64,000 nt of DNA, taken from NCBI GenBank assembly GCA_001630475.1, contig KV419400.1, positions 496,940 through 560,939 on the forward strand. Direction: 5' to 3'. This stretch comes from Sistotremastrum niveocremeum HHB9708. Its lineage: Eukaryota > Basidiomycota > Agaricomycetes > Sistotremastrales > Sistotremastraceae. The translations under genes and the position numbers were made by a program. The notes beneath the pieces are model-generated. The model saw only the letters and a program-made list of their open reading frames with translations. It ran no database searches and was not told where the DNA came from. Positions 6,183-59,327 of the stretch are shown here, piece after piece. The first letter of the stretch is position 1; each line of letters starts with the position of its first letter.

Positions 6183-7299
6183 ATGATCATTGACTTTGAG
6201 AAGCCGCCAAAATACGAAGAGCTAGAGGGCGAGTTATGGCGTAGCTGGTCTCTGTCATCCACAATGGCTAGCACCGATGATCTCACGCTCGTCGACGAGA
6301 GCAGTAGCGGATCAGGCACGGGAAGCACAAAGCACATGCACCAACACGCTCCCTATGATCCCTATGCCAGCAGCAATCTGGACATTGTCGACGATGATTT
6401 CTATGGAGGCATGCGCAGCGGACCAGTCTCAGGCTCAAAGTTTCGCGAAAATCTCGCGTATTCTCCACCGACAAAACCAAAGACCGTGCGTTTTGCCAGC
6501 GCCCCTGTAGTCTCTCGTCCTACAATGCAACCTCCACCTCTTCCACCTCGTCGATATGCTAGTAGCACACTACCGGCGAGGTCGAATTGGGCCGCTTTGT
6601 CCGACTCGTCGGGCTCGTCGTCTTCTCTTCCGATGGCCCCGATGAGTCCACCAAGGCCAATATATAATCGTCAGCAATTTAGTCCTCAGAGACGCGACCA
6701 GCACCTCCCCCCATTATCACGTTTCACGGAGCGATCAGCTCCTTGCCCTGTCTTTGTTCAACCCCCAGACTATCAGCCTTCATCTCGGGTTCCCAAAATA
6801 TTCCAAGCCCAAGCGCAGGTCACTCCATCGACACCGGACAATGTCGACTGGCTCGACGCGACAAGTCCATTCGGAAGAGCTCATCATCATGCCTCGCCTT
6901 ACGACGTTGTCCAACAGGCTAGATTGGATGCGGAGTTACCTCCCCTTCCGCGCATAGAACCTGTAAGTTCTCGACACGTTGATTCCCTATCCCACCTTTG
7001 GTGCCATCTCTGACACAATCTTGTAGCACAATTCACCACGACCGATGCGCCCACAATTAGGTGTCCTGCAGGCATCCACAAATTTCGATCGGCAGCGTGT
7101 TGAGAGACCATTCTCGATGTCCTCGATAGAATTTCATGACGAGCGACCGATCGCATCCGATCCATCTCCTTTGCATGAGAAGAAACGAGGCCTTCTCCGA
7201 AAGAGAACTCTACCCCAAAACCTCACCTCACCTCCACCCCCCGCTTCTAGGCCCCTTCCCGTTGAGCCTAGAAGAAAGCTGAGTAAACGGAAGATTTAA
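6183..7299 (+). CDS. Disordered Pro/Ser-rich protein of unknown function
   Basis: Two exons, 6183..6962 and 7027..7299, give 350 residues. The start at 6183 gives MIIDFEKPPKYEELEGELW; the frame is open upstream but has no earlier ATG. The protein is rich in Ser, Pro and Arg, with PPPLPPRRYASS as a possible SH3 ligand and several SPP/TP sites that could be phosphorylated. It ends in a basic stretch (LPVEPRRKLSKRKI) that could serve as a nuclear signal. I recognise no domain. It follows the previous gene on the same strand after 241 bases. Confidence 0.6.
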
Positions 7300-51879: not shown

Positions 51880-52932
51880 ATGGCACTGCAAGTCTACGTC
51901 CGTGGCCACGAAGAGCGGACGACACCGAAACAACATACAGTGTACAGGATAGAGGTCCAGGCGAGCGTCAGGTCATGGACAATCTTCCACAGATACTCAG
52001 AGTTCGTCGACCTCGACACTGAGCTCACCAAGAGCACAGCCTCGCCACCTCCTGCTCCCCTGCCACCAAAGCACACCTTTTCATTACGTCGGACCATCGC
52101 CCAAAGCGAGTCTATTCTCGAAGAGCGCAGATCAGGGCTCGAGGCTTATCTCAGAGCCATCGTCGCCAGCAAGAATCCTGTATGGAGAGACTCGTTCGCC
52201 TTCCGAGATTTCCTCAGCATCCCCATCTCCAAACAGTCAGCAGATCCAAACTCTCCAGCCCAGTTCTCTTCCACGTCTTGGATCGATGAGCATGCTGACC
52301 TCACATCTCTCCTGCGCGATGCGCGTGCTGATCTCAATAAGCGCGACGCTCTTCTCGACAAGGGCGATCCCACATCATCTCACTCAGCAAATGTTCAAGC
52401 AAAGAAGAAGCTCGCCGCCGTGCTCCTTCGGATCACTCCTCTCGAAAAGGGGCTCGAAAGCCTTGCAAAGTCCGGCCTAAGCGATGGGGAAATTCAGAGA
52501 AGAACCGAGATGACTGCCAGACTTCGTGACGAATGCGACAAGCTGGGCAAAATGGTCGTCGCAGCGCGACAGGCTTCCAAATACGCCGGTCCCGCACTCT
52601 CCGCTGACCGTGAGCAGTTGCTCTCTGGTGCCAATCCAAACCCTTCCTCCCGCCCATTCGCACGAGTGTTTGGTCAGGGTCCTGCAGAAACATCTGCGAC
52701 TCGTCCCTTGGACGATCCAGGTCTCCTTCAGCTCCAGAAAATGCAGATGGATCAGCAAGACGAACAGCTCGATGAGCTCACTGCCATACTACGTCGGCAG
52801 AAGAATCTAGGGATCGTGATCAGCGAGGAAATCGCCAGTCAGATCGAGTTGCTCGATGACCTCAATGACAACGTGGATAGGGTTGGTGGGAAATTGACTT
52901 CCGCGAAGAAGCAGCTGAACAGATTAGATTAA
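51880..52932 (+). CDS. VAM7: VAM7-like PX-domain Qc-SNARE
   Basis: One exon of 350 residues, with no intron, which is rare in this window. The PX domain covers about residues 1-110: HTVYRIEVQASVRSWTIFHR with YSEFVDLDTEL, the PI3P-binding Arg in the RRYSEF-type motif, and LPPKHTFSLRR. The middle is helical. The SNARE motif covers about 285-348 (MQMDQQDEQLDELTAILRRQ, then IASQIELLDDLNDNVDRVGG), with a central Gln that fits layer zero. There is no transmembrane anchor, as in Vam7. It acts at vacuole homotypic fusion with HOPS. Confidence 0.92.
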   Translation: MALQVYVRGHEERTTPKQHTVYRIEVQASVRSWTIFHRYSEFVDLDTELTKSTASPPPAPLPPKHTFSLRRTIAQSESILEERRSGLEAYLRAIVASKNPVWRDSFAFRDFLSIPISKQSADPNSPAQFSSTSWIDEHADLTSLLRDARADLNKRDALLDKGDPTSSHSANVQAKKKLAAVLLRITPLEKGLESLAKSGLSDGEIQRRTEMTARLRDECDKLGKMVVAARQASKYAGPALSADREQLLSGANPNPSSRPFARVFGQGPAETSATRPLDDPGLLQLQKMQMDQQDEQLDELTAILRRQKNLGIVISEEIASQIELLDDLNDNVDRVGGKLTSAKKQLNRLD

Positions 52933-53058: not shown

Positions 53059-55072
53059 TCATAATGCGAACACTTCAGTGTGGACTGCCACACCCCCTGT
53101 GCTCCTCTGCTGTGCTAATGATAAAGATGCCACAGTGTTCAACGCCTCGGTTGTCAGGGACTCGGGTCCACTAACAGCTAACGCGATACCTCCACCTTCC
53201 GAATCTGATAGCAAAGGTTCCAACATGCGCATCACGGAAGGTTTTTCGATCACAACGTCACAATTTGGGATCGAGGGCACACTTTCTGGGTCGCATAAAC
53301 ACGTGACGAATACCGTGATGTGGAGTTGAACGCTTGAATCCTTAGCTAGAGTAGCGATGTCTCTTAGCATTGGTGCGAACCAGAAAAGAGCACCTAAACC
53401 CATCGATCAGAGATCTGGAAGGTTCCCTGTAACAGCTAAGACTGACCGAAAGATCTGATACACCACGCAAATTCGATGCGAGTCGTTTTCTCTCCACCTT
53501 TTCGGCCAAGCTTCACGATCCGCCCGACCAGGTCGTCCAGGATGCCGAGAGTAAATGTAGCCCCGGACCCCCCAGCCACAAGCAACGCTTGTTCATACTC
53601 TCCTGCATCAATGGTCGACCCGCCATAAGGGCCGTCAACCATGACGACGACTCTTGCAGACGACTTCTCTTTATCACTCATAGCATGAGCATTGAGTGCT
53701 TTCGACCAATCACCACAAACGCGTGCGCCGAGAACAAGAGAACCGCGTTGGGTAGAGCTGAAACAAGACACAGAGGACGGCGCGTTGAGAATAGTCAAGG
53801 GATGAGACTCGAAAATCCGGCCTGAGAAGAAAACTCGAAGCCGAACGTGTTGACCTGCAATCCAACCGCCGTCGCAATTCTCGACCTTGACCTACGACAA
53901 ATCAGCGGGGGGAGAAATAGGGAAGTAGACGAGACTGACAATAGTCATTTGATTGTCCGGGGCGTCCAGCACAGCATCTTTAATGCGATAGCGAAGCATG
54001 CGGACGAGGACGTCAAGGCCATAGAAGGCTATTGGCGGATATATCCATGGGATTGAATAGGGGGTGTGATAATTAACCACGACAAAGAACGTAACAACCG
54101 CGACGATGCTGAAGACGTTAGTAAGTGAACGGCTCTCTGAAATAATATGAAGAAACACTCACTGGAAGAAAAAGAAGAGTTGATAAGCATATTGGCGGAC
54201 AGGTTTCAAAGATGTGAGGACGATAATGCCCAAGAGAGCATATGCAATGACGCCAAGGGTTTCTTTCGTGGATCCAATGATTTGGACGTTGTATATCAAG
54301 TGATTTCTGATCCACAAACTGCCATGGATGGTCGCAGACAGGAACATCCCTCTACCACCCCAACGGTGAATGAAATTGAGTTTCTCGTACCCTTGACCAA
54401 GAAGCAAGGTAAGGATACTGTTTTTGGTGGCAAACGCAAAAACGAGAGGAAGTTGTGCTAGAGCAATGAAGCCTGTCCATAATATATCAGCGAAACCAAG
54501 AATAAGGTGTGCCAGCGCAGGAGATGTACCTGCTCGATTCGGATTATCCGTCAGAGGTGCCCGCATCACAATGCATACAACTAATATTGCCATATATGCA
54601 ACGAGAATAATCACTATCACAGGTTCAACAGCTATGCACACATTAAAGACAGTATCACTCACGTTGCCCCAAGTCGAGACTCAATCCTGGCAGCGTCCAA
54701 AAGAGAAATGACCGCAATTTGGCGGCTGTTCCTATACTAGAAGACAGAGATTTCCTTCGGTGATTTGGAAAGCCTTTCTCGTCTACTGTATTCACGGGTT
54801 GGTAATACTTTCCGTATAGATCTTCCCATATCCCAAGACCTTGCCATGCCCGTCCGCTGCGGATGGATCTGTACAGATATGGCGCAGAAAACGCTGCCAG
54901 AACAGCAACGAGTCCTGTCCATGCAACGGTGAAGTGGATCTGCCATGGGGGGTCTAGTGCATAAGTGCTGCGATAAACAAAGCCGAAGTCAGCGAAGCCT
55001 CTCGAACGCTTGCAAGCCTGCTGACTTGTAAATCTGGAACTGGGTAGGGATTGCAGGGGGGGCATCGGCCAT
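53059..55072 (-). CDS. Ferric/cupric reductase transmembrane component (FRE family)
   Basis: Seven exons on the minus strand: 55026..55072, 54663..54967, 54530..54613, 54163..54472, 53940..54108, 53447..53891, 53059..53393, giving 564 residues. The N-terminal helix is IHFTVAWTGLVAVLAAFSAP. The reductase core begins NPNRAGFIALAQLPLVFAFA and continues KLNFIHRWGGRGMFLSATIH, holding haem-ligand His residues. FAD binding is shown by HPLTI in ESHPLTILNA, and NADPH binding by LVAGGSGATFTLGIL and AVSGPESL. The enzyme reduces extracellular Fe(III) and Cu(II) with cytosolic NADPH at the plasma membrane. The intron at 54473-54529 is 57 bases without stops. It heads a same-strand run with BIM1 and CTR. 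Confidence 0.93.
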
Positions 55073-55232
55073 GACAGAAGAGATACAAGGGCAGGAGATG
55101 ATCTCCTTCAATGGACGCCAATGTAGTAAGTGGGAGTAAGAGGCAGGGGAAGACGGGGCCGTCGGACTCTGAAGGAAAGGCAACCGGCGCCTCTTCGGTC
55201 TTTATTGATCGGTGTTGTCATCCTGCCGTAAT

Positions 55233-55255
55233 AGGAAACGGTGAAAAACTTTTTT
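55233..55255 (-). promoter_or_regulatory. Shared promoter element, FRE copy
   Basis: On the minus strand this reads AAAAAAGTTTTTCAC, then C, GTTT, C, CT. It lies about 161-183 bases upstream of the reductase start. The BIM1 promoter carries the same element with 21 of 23 positions identical. No other long sequence is shared by eye between the two promoters. Confidence 0.65.
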
Positions 55256-55502
55256 CTGTTTCGACCACCTCGTGGGGATATTTCATAACAAGCTAAGACC
55301 AGTATGGCGTTTCCCTGTGTCAGATGAGCTTCAGCGGTCAACCGTAGTTCCATATCCCGAGCCAGGCGTCTGGCTCTTGCTTCTCGAAATCCACGCCGAG
55401 ACTTCATCTTTTTTAGATTTTTGCTTTGCGTCGAGCCCTCAGAATGTCCTAGTCTTAATCTCGGAATTCAAGTATTCAGAATTCAAGGAGGTCATCCTAT
55501 TT

Positions 55503-56323
55503 TTACAAGAGATAGGCAGATGCAGCCAATAAAAATGATCCTACAAGAGAAATACTACTAATCGTCATTGACATATCGCTTCCACTCGCCGACTTGCCAC
55601 TAGCGGTAGGAGCTGAAGTGCTACTAGACGACGAACTCGTAGTACTCGGGGCACTTGCAATATTGGCGCAGGTAATATTGGATTCAATTGCACCCTTTGG
55701 CACCGTGAAGCCTTGAACAAGGGTCACATCGGCACACTGGATGTCTCTTTAGTTTATCTCATCTTTGAATAGTAAAACCTACGTACCTGGTACAAAGTGC
55801 CGTCACCGCCATCATAAATGATGAGAATGGTGGCGTCGGTCCCATTGGTTGCGCCGGATATGTTGAGAGAAGAGATGTCGACGTTATAGCAAGCCGGTCC
55901 CTCCGGAATCTGATTGAAGCCTACTAATGGGGGGTACGTAGTCCCAGAAGACGTTGTGTTGAATTGAGAAAAGGTGGTCGGGTTATCAATACCAACAGCG
56001 ACCTCAATAAGCACTGTTTGAGATTAGCTTCCGGTACGTGAATTTACAGTAGAAGGTATACCTGTAGCAGTCGTATGAAAACTGGATATTTGTATTTGAG
56101 CAGGTCCCAGGGGAAACTCGGTGCGATTGGTGACATTGTTAAATCCACCTACAAAGAGAAATCATTACGCGGAAAACAAGAATAGATGATAGAATTTACC
56201 ACATATAGGAGTGACTTCGGCGTCATCATCGAAACCACGAGTCTGCGGATATTGCAGGGTGAAATGTGCTTGCGCTGCACTGGCGAGGAAGGAAGCCGCG
56301 ATGAGACCAGATGTGAACTTCAT
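55503..56323 (-). CDS. BIM1: BIM1-like (X325, LPMO-fold) GPI-anchored copper protein
   Basis: Four exons on the minus strand: 56200..56323, 56062..56148, 55787..56013, 55503..55736, giving 223 residues. A signal peptide (MKFTSGLIAASFLASAAQA) would be cut to expose His20, the N-terminal Cu ligand of the histidine-brace fold. The mature start HFTLQYPQTRGFDDD and the conserved CGGFNNVTNRTEFP are X325/Bim1 hallmarks. Cysteines at the CGG, in GPACYN, in QCADVT and in ITCANI can form two disulphides. A Ser/Thr-rich linker and hydrophobic tail follow, as for a GPI anchor. Cryptococcus Bim1 helps Ctr1 take up copper under scarcity. N-glycosylation sites are frequent. Confidence 0.93.
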
Positions 56324-56445
56324 TGCTTGAAACTGTGAATGCGCAAAGAGCCAAGCAGGTGATGGTACCGAGAGTGTGGTTGTGGTGGTAAAGCAGTTTT
56401 AAAGCCGTTGTTGTTTGGCTACAGTTGCTTGGCTCTGTGTGGTGC

Positions 56446-56469
56446 GAGCAAACAGTGAAAAACTTTTTT
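56446..56469 (-). promoter_or_regulatory. Shared promoter element, BIM1 copy, with a TTTGCTC copper motif
   Basis: On the minus strand 56447-56469 reads AAAAAAGTTTTTCAC, then T, GTTT, G, CT. It continues to C at 56446, so that positions 56446-56452 are TTTGCTC, the core of the yeast Mac1 copper-response element. It stands 123-146 bases upstream of the BIM1 start. Confidence 0.6.
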
Positions 56470-56728
56470 TCGCAATTTTTCCATGGACCCTCCGATCGGC
56501 TTTGCAACATCTCCTATCTGTTTCACATCATCTGACCCACTCAGAGTTGCTGCCGGAAGGAATAGTACCTTGCTTTTGATGCGTCATTTACAGCTTACCC
56601 GATCGCTAGTCGTCCTTGGGCATTTGTGCAAAGCGATGTGTCGACTTCAACGTTTGAAATACGAATACGAAAAACATTTTCATAAAACTACAGCATACTG
56701 GACAGAGATACAAAGCTTCTTCGGAAGG

Positions 56729-57472
56729 CTAATGAAGGTGGGCCGCGAGTGCCGCATAACGCCCAAAGATGATTTCTCCCACCCCGAGGCCAACGACAAT
56801 CGAGATCAGGAACCCCGCTTGAAAAGTCCTAGCCCAGGCAGACAGAGATTAGCGAAATTACTACATGAGGGATAGAACAGATATCCACTTACATGACTGC
56901 TAACATTAGAGCATATCCAAGAGCCGCTTGAGCCGCGTGGATGATACCACGAGCGATGTCGTGAGCAGGAATGAACGGCGCCATGGTGCGAAGCGCCGCA
57001 ATGCGGCCTTCAGCGGGACGTGTTGCGTTATTGAGCTTCGGCAGAGATTCGATTTCGGTTTGGCTTTCCTTTTCGTTAACGGAAGTGGCCGCGTTACTGA
57101 TACCGGCAATGCGGGCGGCGACAATGGCGCTACTCCTTCATGGGAACAGTCAACGTGAGATACAGGGAAGGACCACCACGGACTGGCTTACCGTCGCCTC
57201 CAGTATGCCTCCATCACGCCTCGCATTGCAGCAAGCCAACGTTCAATGATGGCCAACATGAACAAGCCGATACAGGCACCGGCAAGTGCACCTTTGGATT
57301 GTGGAACCCATGCACTGAACCACAACGAATCCCCCAGACTGAAATGCATCCAGGGCATCATCATCCCGCCCGATGTCATTCCTCCCATGTCATCCATGCC
57401 ATCCGACGACATATCAGGATCCATCTGAGCAGCAACGCCCAAAAAAAGCAGAGGGAGGAGAGCGATCGACAT
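56729..57472 (-). CDS. CTR-family high-affinity copper transporter
   Basis: Three exons on the minus strand: 57192..57472, 56893..57129, 56729..56828, giving 205 residues. After a signal-like start (MSIALLPLLFLGVAAQ) comes a Met-rich ectodomain (MDPDMSSDGMDDMGGM, TSGGMMMPWMHFS) that would bind Cu(I). The first membrane helix (GALAGACIGLFMLAIIERW) follows. The basic/polar cytosolic loop then precedes AALGYALMLAVMTFQAGFLI (Met-containing helix 2) and SIVVGLGVGEIIFGRY (helix 3 with its GxxxG packing motif). CTR proteins are trimers that import Cu(I). It lies 405 bases upstream of BIM1 on the same strand, each with its own promoter. Confidence 0.93.
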
Positions 57473-58682: not shown

Positions 58683-59327
58683 ATGTTGCGTTTTGCTGCC
58701 CAAAGAGTCGCCTCTCGAGCATTACGGCCTCAAGCCACTGTTTTCAGAGCAAGGCAATGTCTTGTTGCAAACTTTGGAACCACTATACGTCGTCAGAACG
58801 CCAAAGATCCTAGCAAGCCCGGCGACGCCGTTCTCGAGGAGCACAAGAAGCTTCAATCTGACTGGACTGCTCCTCTGGTACACTATGATACCGTGAAGGC
58901 ATGGTCTGAAAGGCCTTCATTTGTATGTCCCAGAATGCCCATATCAGACGTCATATCATCGGTTTGATCCAGGACGCCTATCTCATTGATGTACGAGAAC
59001 CGGATGAGACCATCCAAGGCATCATTCCCTCAGCTGTCACTCTCCCTCTGTCTGGGATGTCTAAGTCCTTGCATCTGGCCGCGACTGACTTCAAAGCTCA
59101 ACATGGCTACGAGAAACCACTTCCCCATCAGGAAATCATATTCTATTGCAGATCTGGCAAGCGAAGTCAGACTGCAGCCGACATAGCCAGGCGAAATGGC
59201 TATAAAAAGTGAGCATTCATTTCAGATAACTTTTTGTCGCTCATCAGCCTCATCCAGCGTTAAATCATACGATGGGTCTTGGTTGGACTGGGTCAAACGA
59301 GAACAAAGCCCTTCATCATCATCGTAA
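58683..59327 (+). CDS. Mitochondrial single-domain rhodanese
   Basis: Three exons: 58683..58922, 58973..59208, 59258..59327, giving 181 residues. The N-terminus (MLRFAAQRVASRALRPQATV) is a strong mitochondrial presequence. The rhodanese domain covers about 75-172: AYLIDVREPDETIQGIIPSA, then the active loop EIIFYCRSGKRSQTAAD with catalytic Cys, and NVKSYDGSWLDWVKRE at the end. The last part is restored by using the second of two adjacent acceptors (59257). The family moves sulfane sulfur, for example in thiosulfate or hydrogen sulfide metabolism. The substrate cannot be told. Confidence 0.9.

What the first reader, a model, noticed from the sequence alone, without database searches (positions are those of the whole stretch)
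53059..57472. Three-gene copper-acquisition cluster: reductase, BIM1, CTR
A metalloreductase, a BIM1-type histidine-brace protein and a CTR transporter lie in a row on one strand with nothing between them. Established work in Cryptococcus shows Bim1 helping Ctr1 under copper scarcity. Here the reductase that makes Cu(I) is physically linked too, which suggests a surface relay: reduce, capture, import. Seen: gene order, families, the N-terminal His after the BIM1 signal peptide. Inferred: joint function.
Basis: partly seen in the sequence, partly recalled or inferred. Interest (0 to 1): 0.75.

Follow-up and report, generated by a model that had tools for sequence, protein, structure and literature searches.

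The report
Fungal copper-uptake gene trio
A fungal chromosome carries, side by side, genes for a copper transporter, a surface copper-binding protein and a metal reductase; the last two share a DNA switch-like word that is very rare in the genome, which suggests they are turned on together to gather scarce copper.

Summary
On the minus strand lie CTR (57472-56729), BIM1 (56323-55503) and a ferric-reductase-family gene (55072-53059), with gaps of 405 and 430 bp. All three spliced models pass Pfam cut-offs; the BIM1 brace histidines are its only histidines.

First, BIM1 was found at two loci and both lie beside a CTR. The second pair (contig C38) uses a CTR of another subfamily; no reductase was found there. 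Second, the 15-mer GTGAAAAACTTTTTT occurs exactly three times in 34.7 Mb: upstream of BIM1, of the reductase and of the second BIM1, same orientation, 132-183 bp before each ATG.

Best explanation: a copper-scarcity surface module (BIM1 captures, reductase makes Cu(I), CTR imports), BIM1 and reductase under one shared element. Against joint control of all three: the CTR promoter lacks the element, and there are no expression data.

CTR-reductase adjacency is published (A. nidulans and 110 of 127 fungi screened; F. oxysporum), and so is BIM1-CTR coupling in Cryptococcus. The linked trio and the element were not found in the papers searched. Conservation in relatives could not be tested. New variant of a known kind.

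The parts
56729..57472 (-). CTR copper transporter gene; exons 57472-57192, 57135-56893, 56828-56729; 207 aa with Met-rich N-terminus (9 Met in residues 17-42), MLAVM (M-x3-M) and GLGVG in the second half
   Evidence: Gene model; PF04145 E 4.4e-36; PDB 6m97 CTR1 chimera E 3e-06; Met positions
55503..56323 (-). BIM1/X325-type histidine-brace protein gene; exons 56323-56200, 56148-56062, 56013-55787, 55736-55503; 223 aa, signal peptide, mature N-terminal His (H20), second His H66, hydrophobic C-terminal tail of GPI-anchor type
   Evidence: PF20238 E 3.6e-31; 6ibh/6ibi/6ibj E 4e-21; signal cleavage and GPI tail judged by eye plus hydropathy
53059..55072 (-). Ferric/cupric-reductase-family gene; exons 55072-55026, 54967-54663, 54613-54163 (start of this exon uncertain), 54108-53940, 53891-53447, 53393-53059; 583 aa, two H-x13-H pairs (200/214 and 268/282), FAD and NAD(P)H domains
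56455..56469 (-). Shared promoter word AAAAAAGTTTTTCAC (gene sense), -146 to -132 from the BIM1 ATG; with its flank GCGAAAAAAAGTTTTTCAC
55241..55255 (-). Same 15-mer, -183 to -169 from the reductase ATG
56446..56452 (-). TTTGCTC (core of the published Mac1 site TTTGCTCA) 2 bases downstream of the 15-mer in the BIM1 promoter; not found in the other six promoters scanned
   Evidence: position -129 from ATG; 10 such words on both strands of the 64-kb window, so weak on its own

Best explanation
This is a copper-scarcity uptake cluster at the fungal cell surface. A GPI-anchored BIM1/X325 protein binds extracellular or cell-wall copper in its histidine brace. The neighbouring plasma-membrane flavocytochrome passes cytosolic electrons outward and makes Cu(I). 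The Met-rich CTR channel imports Cu(I). BIM1 and the reductase, and a BIM1 paralogue elsewhere, are switched on by one factor through an element around AAAAAAGTTTTTCAC about 130-185 bp before the ATG. Shown: gene structure, families, brace residues, adjacency, recurrence of CTR-BIM1 linkage, and the genome-wide rarity and placement of the exact word. Inferred: protein roles, the Cu(II) to Cu(I) order, induction by copper shortage, and that the word binds a regulator.
For: Family assignments and the structural relative 6ibh. 2 of 2 BIM1 loci beside a CTR (a protein search at E up to 10 found no third BIM1 locus), with BIM1s 66% identical but their CTRs only 25% identical; the C38 CTR is 48% identical to the third CTR on C2, so the second pair does not look like a plain copy of the first. 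The exact 15-mer occurs 3 times in the genome, all three upstream of these genes in the same orientation, backward control 0. The longest word common to the three promoters is 15, against a maximum of 11 in 2000 shuffles. Of 21 promoter pairs among seven copper-gene promoters only the three BIM1/reductase pairs share a word longer than 13. Published biology: Bim1/Cbi1 works with Ctr1 and both are in the Cuf1 low-copper regulon (PMC9258870 passages); CTR and reductase genes are co-induced and clustered under Mac1 in F. oxysporum (PMC11563359 passages).
Against: The CTR upstream region, 1.2 kb to the next gene, has no copy of the element with up to 3 mismatches and no TTTGCTC/TTTGCGC site. For the BIM1/reductase pair alone, 1 of 2000 shuffles also reached a shared word of 15. 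Inside the window alone, 2 matches with up to 3 mismatches is not unusual (6 of 100 shuffles had at least 2). With 2 mismatches allowed on an 18-mer there are 5 sites in the genome (3 copper, 2 other) against 6 for the backward control, so only the exact word is informative. I noticed the word by eye before testing it. The element does not fit the published Cryptococcus CuRE consensus. The two BIM1 promoters may share it simply by descent. No expression data, no relatives' genomes. The reductase could serve iron.
Confidence: 0.72

Rival explanations
1. Only CTR and BIM1 form the copper unit; the reductase is a neighbour that serves iron (or both metals) and the shared promoter word is a general element such as an AT-tract nucleosome-depleting site.
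For: No reductase match was found on C38, where the second CTR-BIM1 pair lies. FRE-family enzymes reduce iron and copper alike (recalled). AT tracts are common in fungal promoters (recalled). 1 of 2000 shuffles of the BIM1/reductase pair reached the same word length.
Against: The exact word is not common: 3 occurrences in 34.7 Mb; the broader pattern GAAAAAN{0,4}TTTTTCRC has 4 distinct places (6 matches), three of them these promoters, against 3 backward-control matches. The word is in the reductase promoter, not in that of the CTR.
Confidence: 0.15
2. The proteins act on the cell wall: BIM1 is chiefly a wall-integrity or oxidative protein and copper uptake is secondary.
For: Cryptococcus Cbi1 also affects chitin/chitosan in the wall (PMC9258870 abstract, author summary and passages). 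P. destructans authors propose that BIM1-like isoforms may have split roles (PMC13208438 passages).
Against: Physical linkage to CTR at both loci; no polysaccharide cleavage detected for several X325 members (PMC7924993 passage).
Confidence: 0.08
3. Chance adjacency of three unrelated genes, with a chance promoter match picked out after the fact.
For: The promoter word was noticed by eye before it was tested; relaxed searches show no excess over the backward control; no relatives were available to show conservation.
Against: Few family members genome-wide, recurrence of CTR-BIM1 at C38, and three exact words at three copper-gene promoters with none elsewhere.
Confidence: 0.05

Closest known systems
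Cryptococcus neoformans Cbi1/Bim1 with Ctr1 (Cuf1 low-copper regulon)
   Same: GPI-anchored histidine-brace-family protein working with a CTR transporter; same families (PMC9258870 passages)
   Different: Published as a functional and co-regulation link; in the passages read nothing says the genes are neighbours, and no reductase is tied in. The published CuRE consensus (PMC7961099 passages) does not match the element here
Aspergillus nidulans ctrA-freC tandem (and orthologues)
   Same: CTR and metalloreductase next to each other, sharing a promoter region where Mac1 binds; 110 of 127 screened fungal species with a ctrA orthologue (PMC7705104 passages)
   Different: BIM1 and Cbi1 are not mentioned in that paper (0 occurrences in the listings). 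Here BIM1 lies between and the genes are head to tail, each with its own upstream region. Which species were screened, and whether any is a basidiomycete, was not seen (figure not held)
Fusarium oxysporum ctr3/fre9/FOXG_07771 and fre12/ctr1b clusters
   Same: Clustered, Mac1-dependent, low-copper induced CTR and reductase genes (PMC11563359 passages)
   Different: ctr/fre pairs divergently transcribed; BIM1 not mentioned (0 occurrences); Mac1 motif DHNTGCTCANNN
Laetisaria arvalis LaX325 (PDB 6ibh, 6ibi, 6ibj)
   Same: Same protein family as the BIM1 here, brace His residues aligned; organism from PMC7924993 passage
   Different: A single protein structure; genomic context not given in what was read
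Pseudogymnoascus destructans low-copper gene set (CTR1a/b, BLP2/3, FRE) and CRC cluster
   Same: CTR, BIM1-like and metalloreductase genes respond together to copper withholding (PMC12113139 passages)
   Different: Gene numbers put CTR and BIM1-like genes at separate loci; the reductase named there (VC83_01834) is in a cluster with metallophore-type genes

Membership tests
BIM1/X325 (PF20238) | Family profile match over cut-off | tested here: met
   108.9 bits against cut-off 27
BIM1/X325 (PF20238) | His at the mature N-terminus plus a second internal His (copper brace) | tested here: met
   H20 and H66 align with His1 and the internal His of 6ibh; no other His in the protein. Cleavage site judged by eye
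BIM1/X325 (PF20238) | Copper binding without polysaccharide cleavage; GPI anchoring | not testable with these tools
   C-terminal hydrophobic tail seen; biochemistry needed
CTR copper transporters (PF04145) | Profile match; M-x3-M in a transmembrane helix, GxxxG-type motif, Met-rich ectodomain | tested here: met
   125.1 bits against 25.3; MLAVM and GLGVG, Met-rich N-terminus in the model. Motif definitions recalled, the M-xxx-M one also in PMC7705104
FRE metalloreductases | Ferric_reduct, FAD_binding_8 and NAD_binding_6 domains; two His pairs for haem | tested here: met
   All three domains over cut-off; H200/H214 and H268/H282. Meaning of the His pairs recalled
FRE metalloreductases | Uses Cu(II), induced by copper shortage | not testable with these tools
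   Inferred from linkage and the shared promoter word only
CTR-reductase gene cluster (A. nidulans ctrA-freC type) | CTR and reductase directly adjacent, sharing a promoter | tested here: not met
   BIM1 lies between them and all are on one strand
Mac1/Cuf1 copper-response element | TTTGCTCA-type site or Cryptococcus CuRE before each gene | tested here: not met
   TTTGCTC and TTTGCGCA are found before BIM1 only, TGCTCA and the Cryptococcus consensus in none of 7 promoters (CTR to 1.2 kb for the TTTGC[TG]C words). The fission-yeast-type consensus DWDDHGCTGD (recalled) matches once before this CTR and once before the C2 CTR, but 76 times in the window, so it says nothing
Conserved cluster across basidiomycetes | Same three families adjacent in relatives | not testable with these tools
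   Genome tool states the window's assembly has no relatives held; by their descriptions the other genome collections offered are prokaryote, phage, plasmid or viral, and no metagenome scan was allowed

The most novel reading that the evidence does not exclude
This lineage uses a copper-response element unlike the known CuRE, built like an inverted repeat of GYGAAAAA half-sites (GCGAAAAAA/GTTTTTCAC, complete in the two BIM1 promoters, one half complete in the reductase promoter), that marks a very small regulon: the two BIM1 capture proteins and one dedicated cupric reductase, but not the transporters. Capture and reduction would then be regulated as one unit apart from import, and BIM1 would have come to lie next to different CTR genes more than once.
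Probability: 0.35. Interest if true: 0.55.

Novelty: new variant of a known kind. Interest (0 to 1): 0.42.

Why it matters
How BIM1 hands copper to CTR, and which enzyme reduces it, is unsettled: the Cryptococcus paper seen here calls the mechanism of Cbi1 action unknown (PMC9258870 abstract). A locus where the capture protein sits between a transporter and one particular reductase, and shares a very rare promoter word with that reductase, names the candidate reductase and gives a clean promoter test.

Tried and rejected
Joint control of all three by one motif: not shown, because the CTR promoter lacks the word. The Mac1/Cuf1 consensus as the shared element: not met. The 15-mer as a repeat element or general promoter tract: rejected, only 3 copies (the tool warns that it skips simple repeats and very common words). 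Relaxed motif searches: with 2 mismatches on an 18-mer, 5 places against 6 for the backward control, so no excess beyond the exact word. Of the two extra places, the C13 one (also the fourth place) had no copper gene that I recognised by eye in reading frames within about 2.4 kb (no family search was run there, and the C13 reductase-family locus is about 82 kb away); the C3 one lies inside a long open frame (L043:3134-6661). Plain segmental duplication of CTR-BIM1: disfavoured by 25% CTR identity against 66% BIM1 identity. The C38 CTR as a full high-affinity transporter: doubtful, no Met-rich N-terminus seen in the three forward frames of the 0.4 kb before it. Literature for a linked BIM1-CTR-reductase trio: not seen in the listings of searches; a search for pieces of the word together with 'copper' listed one paper, on a viral vector, with no 'copper' in it. 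Only open-licence PubMed Central papers are held; of the papers listed I saw passages of ten (one search found nothing), none in full; the two original BIM1/X325 papers (recalled, 2020) were not seen.
Full report
The region and its genes. The window lies at C7:496940-560939 of a 34.7-Mb assembly. KDZ transposase matches (19) and introns of 48-64 nt point to a basidiomycete; that KDZ is typical of basidiomycetes is recalled. On the minus strand three genes follow one another: CTR (57472-56729, 3 exons, 207 aa), BIM1 (56323-55503, 4 exons, 223 aa) and a reductase (55072-53059, 6 exons, 583 aa). Gaps are 405 and 430 bp. The finding's coordinates match the first and last coding bases exactly. Pfam confirms each family well above cut-off. 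Flanking genes are a PX-domain gene at 51880-52932 (+) and a gene with a rhodanese-domain exon at 58910-59212 (+), whose start I place by eye near 58683; I know of no copper role for either.

The proteins. BIM1 has a signal peptide, the mature N-terminus HFTLQYPQTRG, and just two histidines, H20 and H66, which align with His1 and the internal His of the solved X325 protein 6ibh. The QCADVT stretch also aligns. The tail is hydrophobic as for a GPI anchor. CTR has a Met-rich ectodomain (9 Met in residues 17-42) and the MLAVM and GLGVG motifs. The reductase has two H-x13-H pairs and FAD and NAD(P)H domains. Its second intron is uncertain.

Copies in the genome. The search tool scores only its best candidates, so these are lower bounds. 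CTR matches fall at 3 loci (C7, C2, C38), BIM1 at 2 (C7, C38, and no third in a protein search up to E 10), PF01794 at 6, one of them below cut-off. PF08030 falls at 5 loci, one of them (C51) outside that set, none on C38. Of the other PF01794 loci, those on C59 and at C7:930k look like NADPH oxidases rather than metalloreductases, judged by eye. BIM1b on C38 (L016:8184-9014) lies 0.9 kb after a CTR gene (L016 about 6697-7267) on the same strand, and a 27-residue Cys-rich, metallothionein-like gene (L016:6051-6248) lies before that. The BIM1 pair is 66% identical (145 of 220 aligned). The two neighbouring CTRs are 25% identical (34 of 138), whereas the C38 CTR is 48% identical to the C2 CTR (63 of 131); window CTR against C2 CTR is 31% (45 of 146) (the C38 and C2 models were spliced by eye). 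So BIM1 sits beside a CTR at both its loci, but beside CTRs of different subfamilies. The C38 CTR model lacks a Met-rich N-terminus.

The shared promoter word. BIM1, the reductase and BIM1b share AAAAAAGTTTTTCAC in gene sense, starting at -146, -183 and -155 from their ATGs. I saw the shared stretch by eye while reading and then tested it. Its reverse complement GTGAAAAACTTTTTT has 3 matches in the whole genome, those three, and the backward control has 0. The three-way longest common word is 15, against a maximum of 11 in 2000 dinucleotide shuffles; for BIM1 against reductase alone 15 was reached in 1 of 2000 shuffles, and random pairs of window stretches reached at most 14. Of 21 pairs among seven copper-gene promoters only these three pairs exceed 13 (15, 16, 16). 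A broader pattern has 6 matches at 4 distinct places genome-wide, the fourth on C13, with 3 backward-control matches. With 2 mismatches on an 18-mer the count, 5, is no higher than the backward control, 6, and inside the window alone 2 matches within 3 mismatches is reached by 6 of 100 shuffles. So the exact word and its genome-wide placement carry the evidence. The search tool warns that it skips simple repeats and very common words. The CTR promoter has no such word within 3 mismatches.

Mechanism. The likely chain is: BIM1 takes copper from the medium or wall, the reductase supplies Cu(I), CTR imports it. That Ctr1 imports Cu(I) and that Bim1 works with it is published (PMC7924993 passage; PMC9258870 passages). 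That a histidine brace prefers Cu(II) at rest is recalled, and is why I put capture before reduction. Co-regulation of BIM1 and the reductase is inferred from the promoter word. The genome holds four copper-fist loci; whether one binds the word is unknown. The word with its flank looks like two inverted half-sites GYGAAAAA in the two BIM1 promoters (one half changed in the reductase promoter), which is an observation and not a shown binding mode.

Comparison with what is known. CTR-reductase neighbours are established: A. nidulans ctrA-freC, in tandem in 110 of 127 fungal species screened by its authors (PMC7705104 passages; I did not see which species), and two F. oxysporum clusters under Mac1 (PMC11563359 passages). 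P. destructans induces CTR, BIM1-like and reductase genes together from separate loci (PMC12113139 passages). In the passages read, none ties BIM1 physically to either. So the kind is known; the trio with BIM1 in the middle, and the word, are a variant as far as these searches reach. I could not test conservation in relatives.

Verdict. Observation confirmed; interpretation partly supported and sharpened; interest moderate.

Noticed in passing
L016:6051-6248 (C38): Candidate 27-residue metallothionein-like gene with three exons (MAGEHVCSCGTNCSCPTGQCKCGTKTK), next to a CTR and BIM1 paralogue; its promoter has the half-site word TTTTTTTCGC. No Pfam match.
   Followed up: partly
L016 about 6697-7267 (C38): CTR-like gene with intact reading frame but no Met-rich N-terminus found; may be a divergent or decaying transporter.
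   Followed up: partly
C17:624938, C37:167138, C18:379214, C48:40271: Four copper-fist transcription factor loci; Cryptococcus is described as using a single one, Cuf1 (PMC13343922 passages).
   Followed up: no
C13:813884 (L037:4885): Fourth place matching the broader promoter pattern; no copper gene recognised by eye within about 2.4 kb.
   Followed up: partly
window 51880-52932: PX-domain gene of Vam7-like look immediately beyond the reductase, on the opposite strand (the Vam7 likeness is judged by eye).
   Followed up: no
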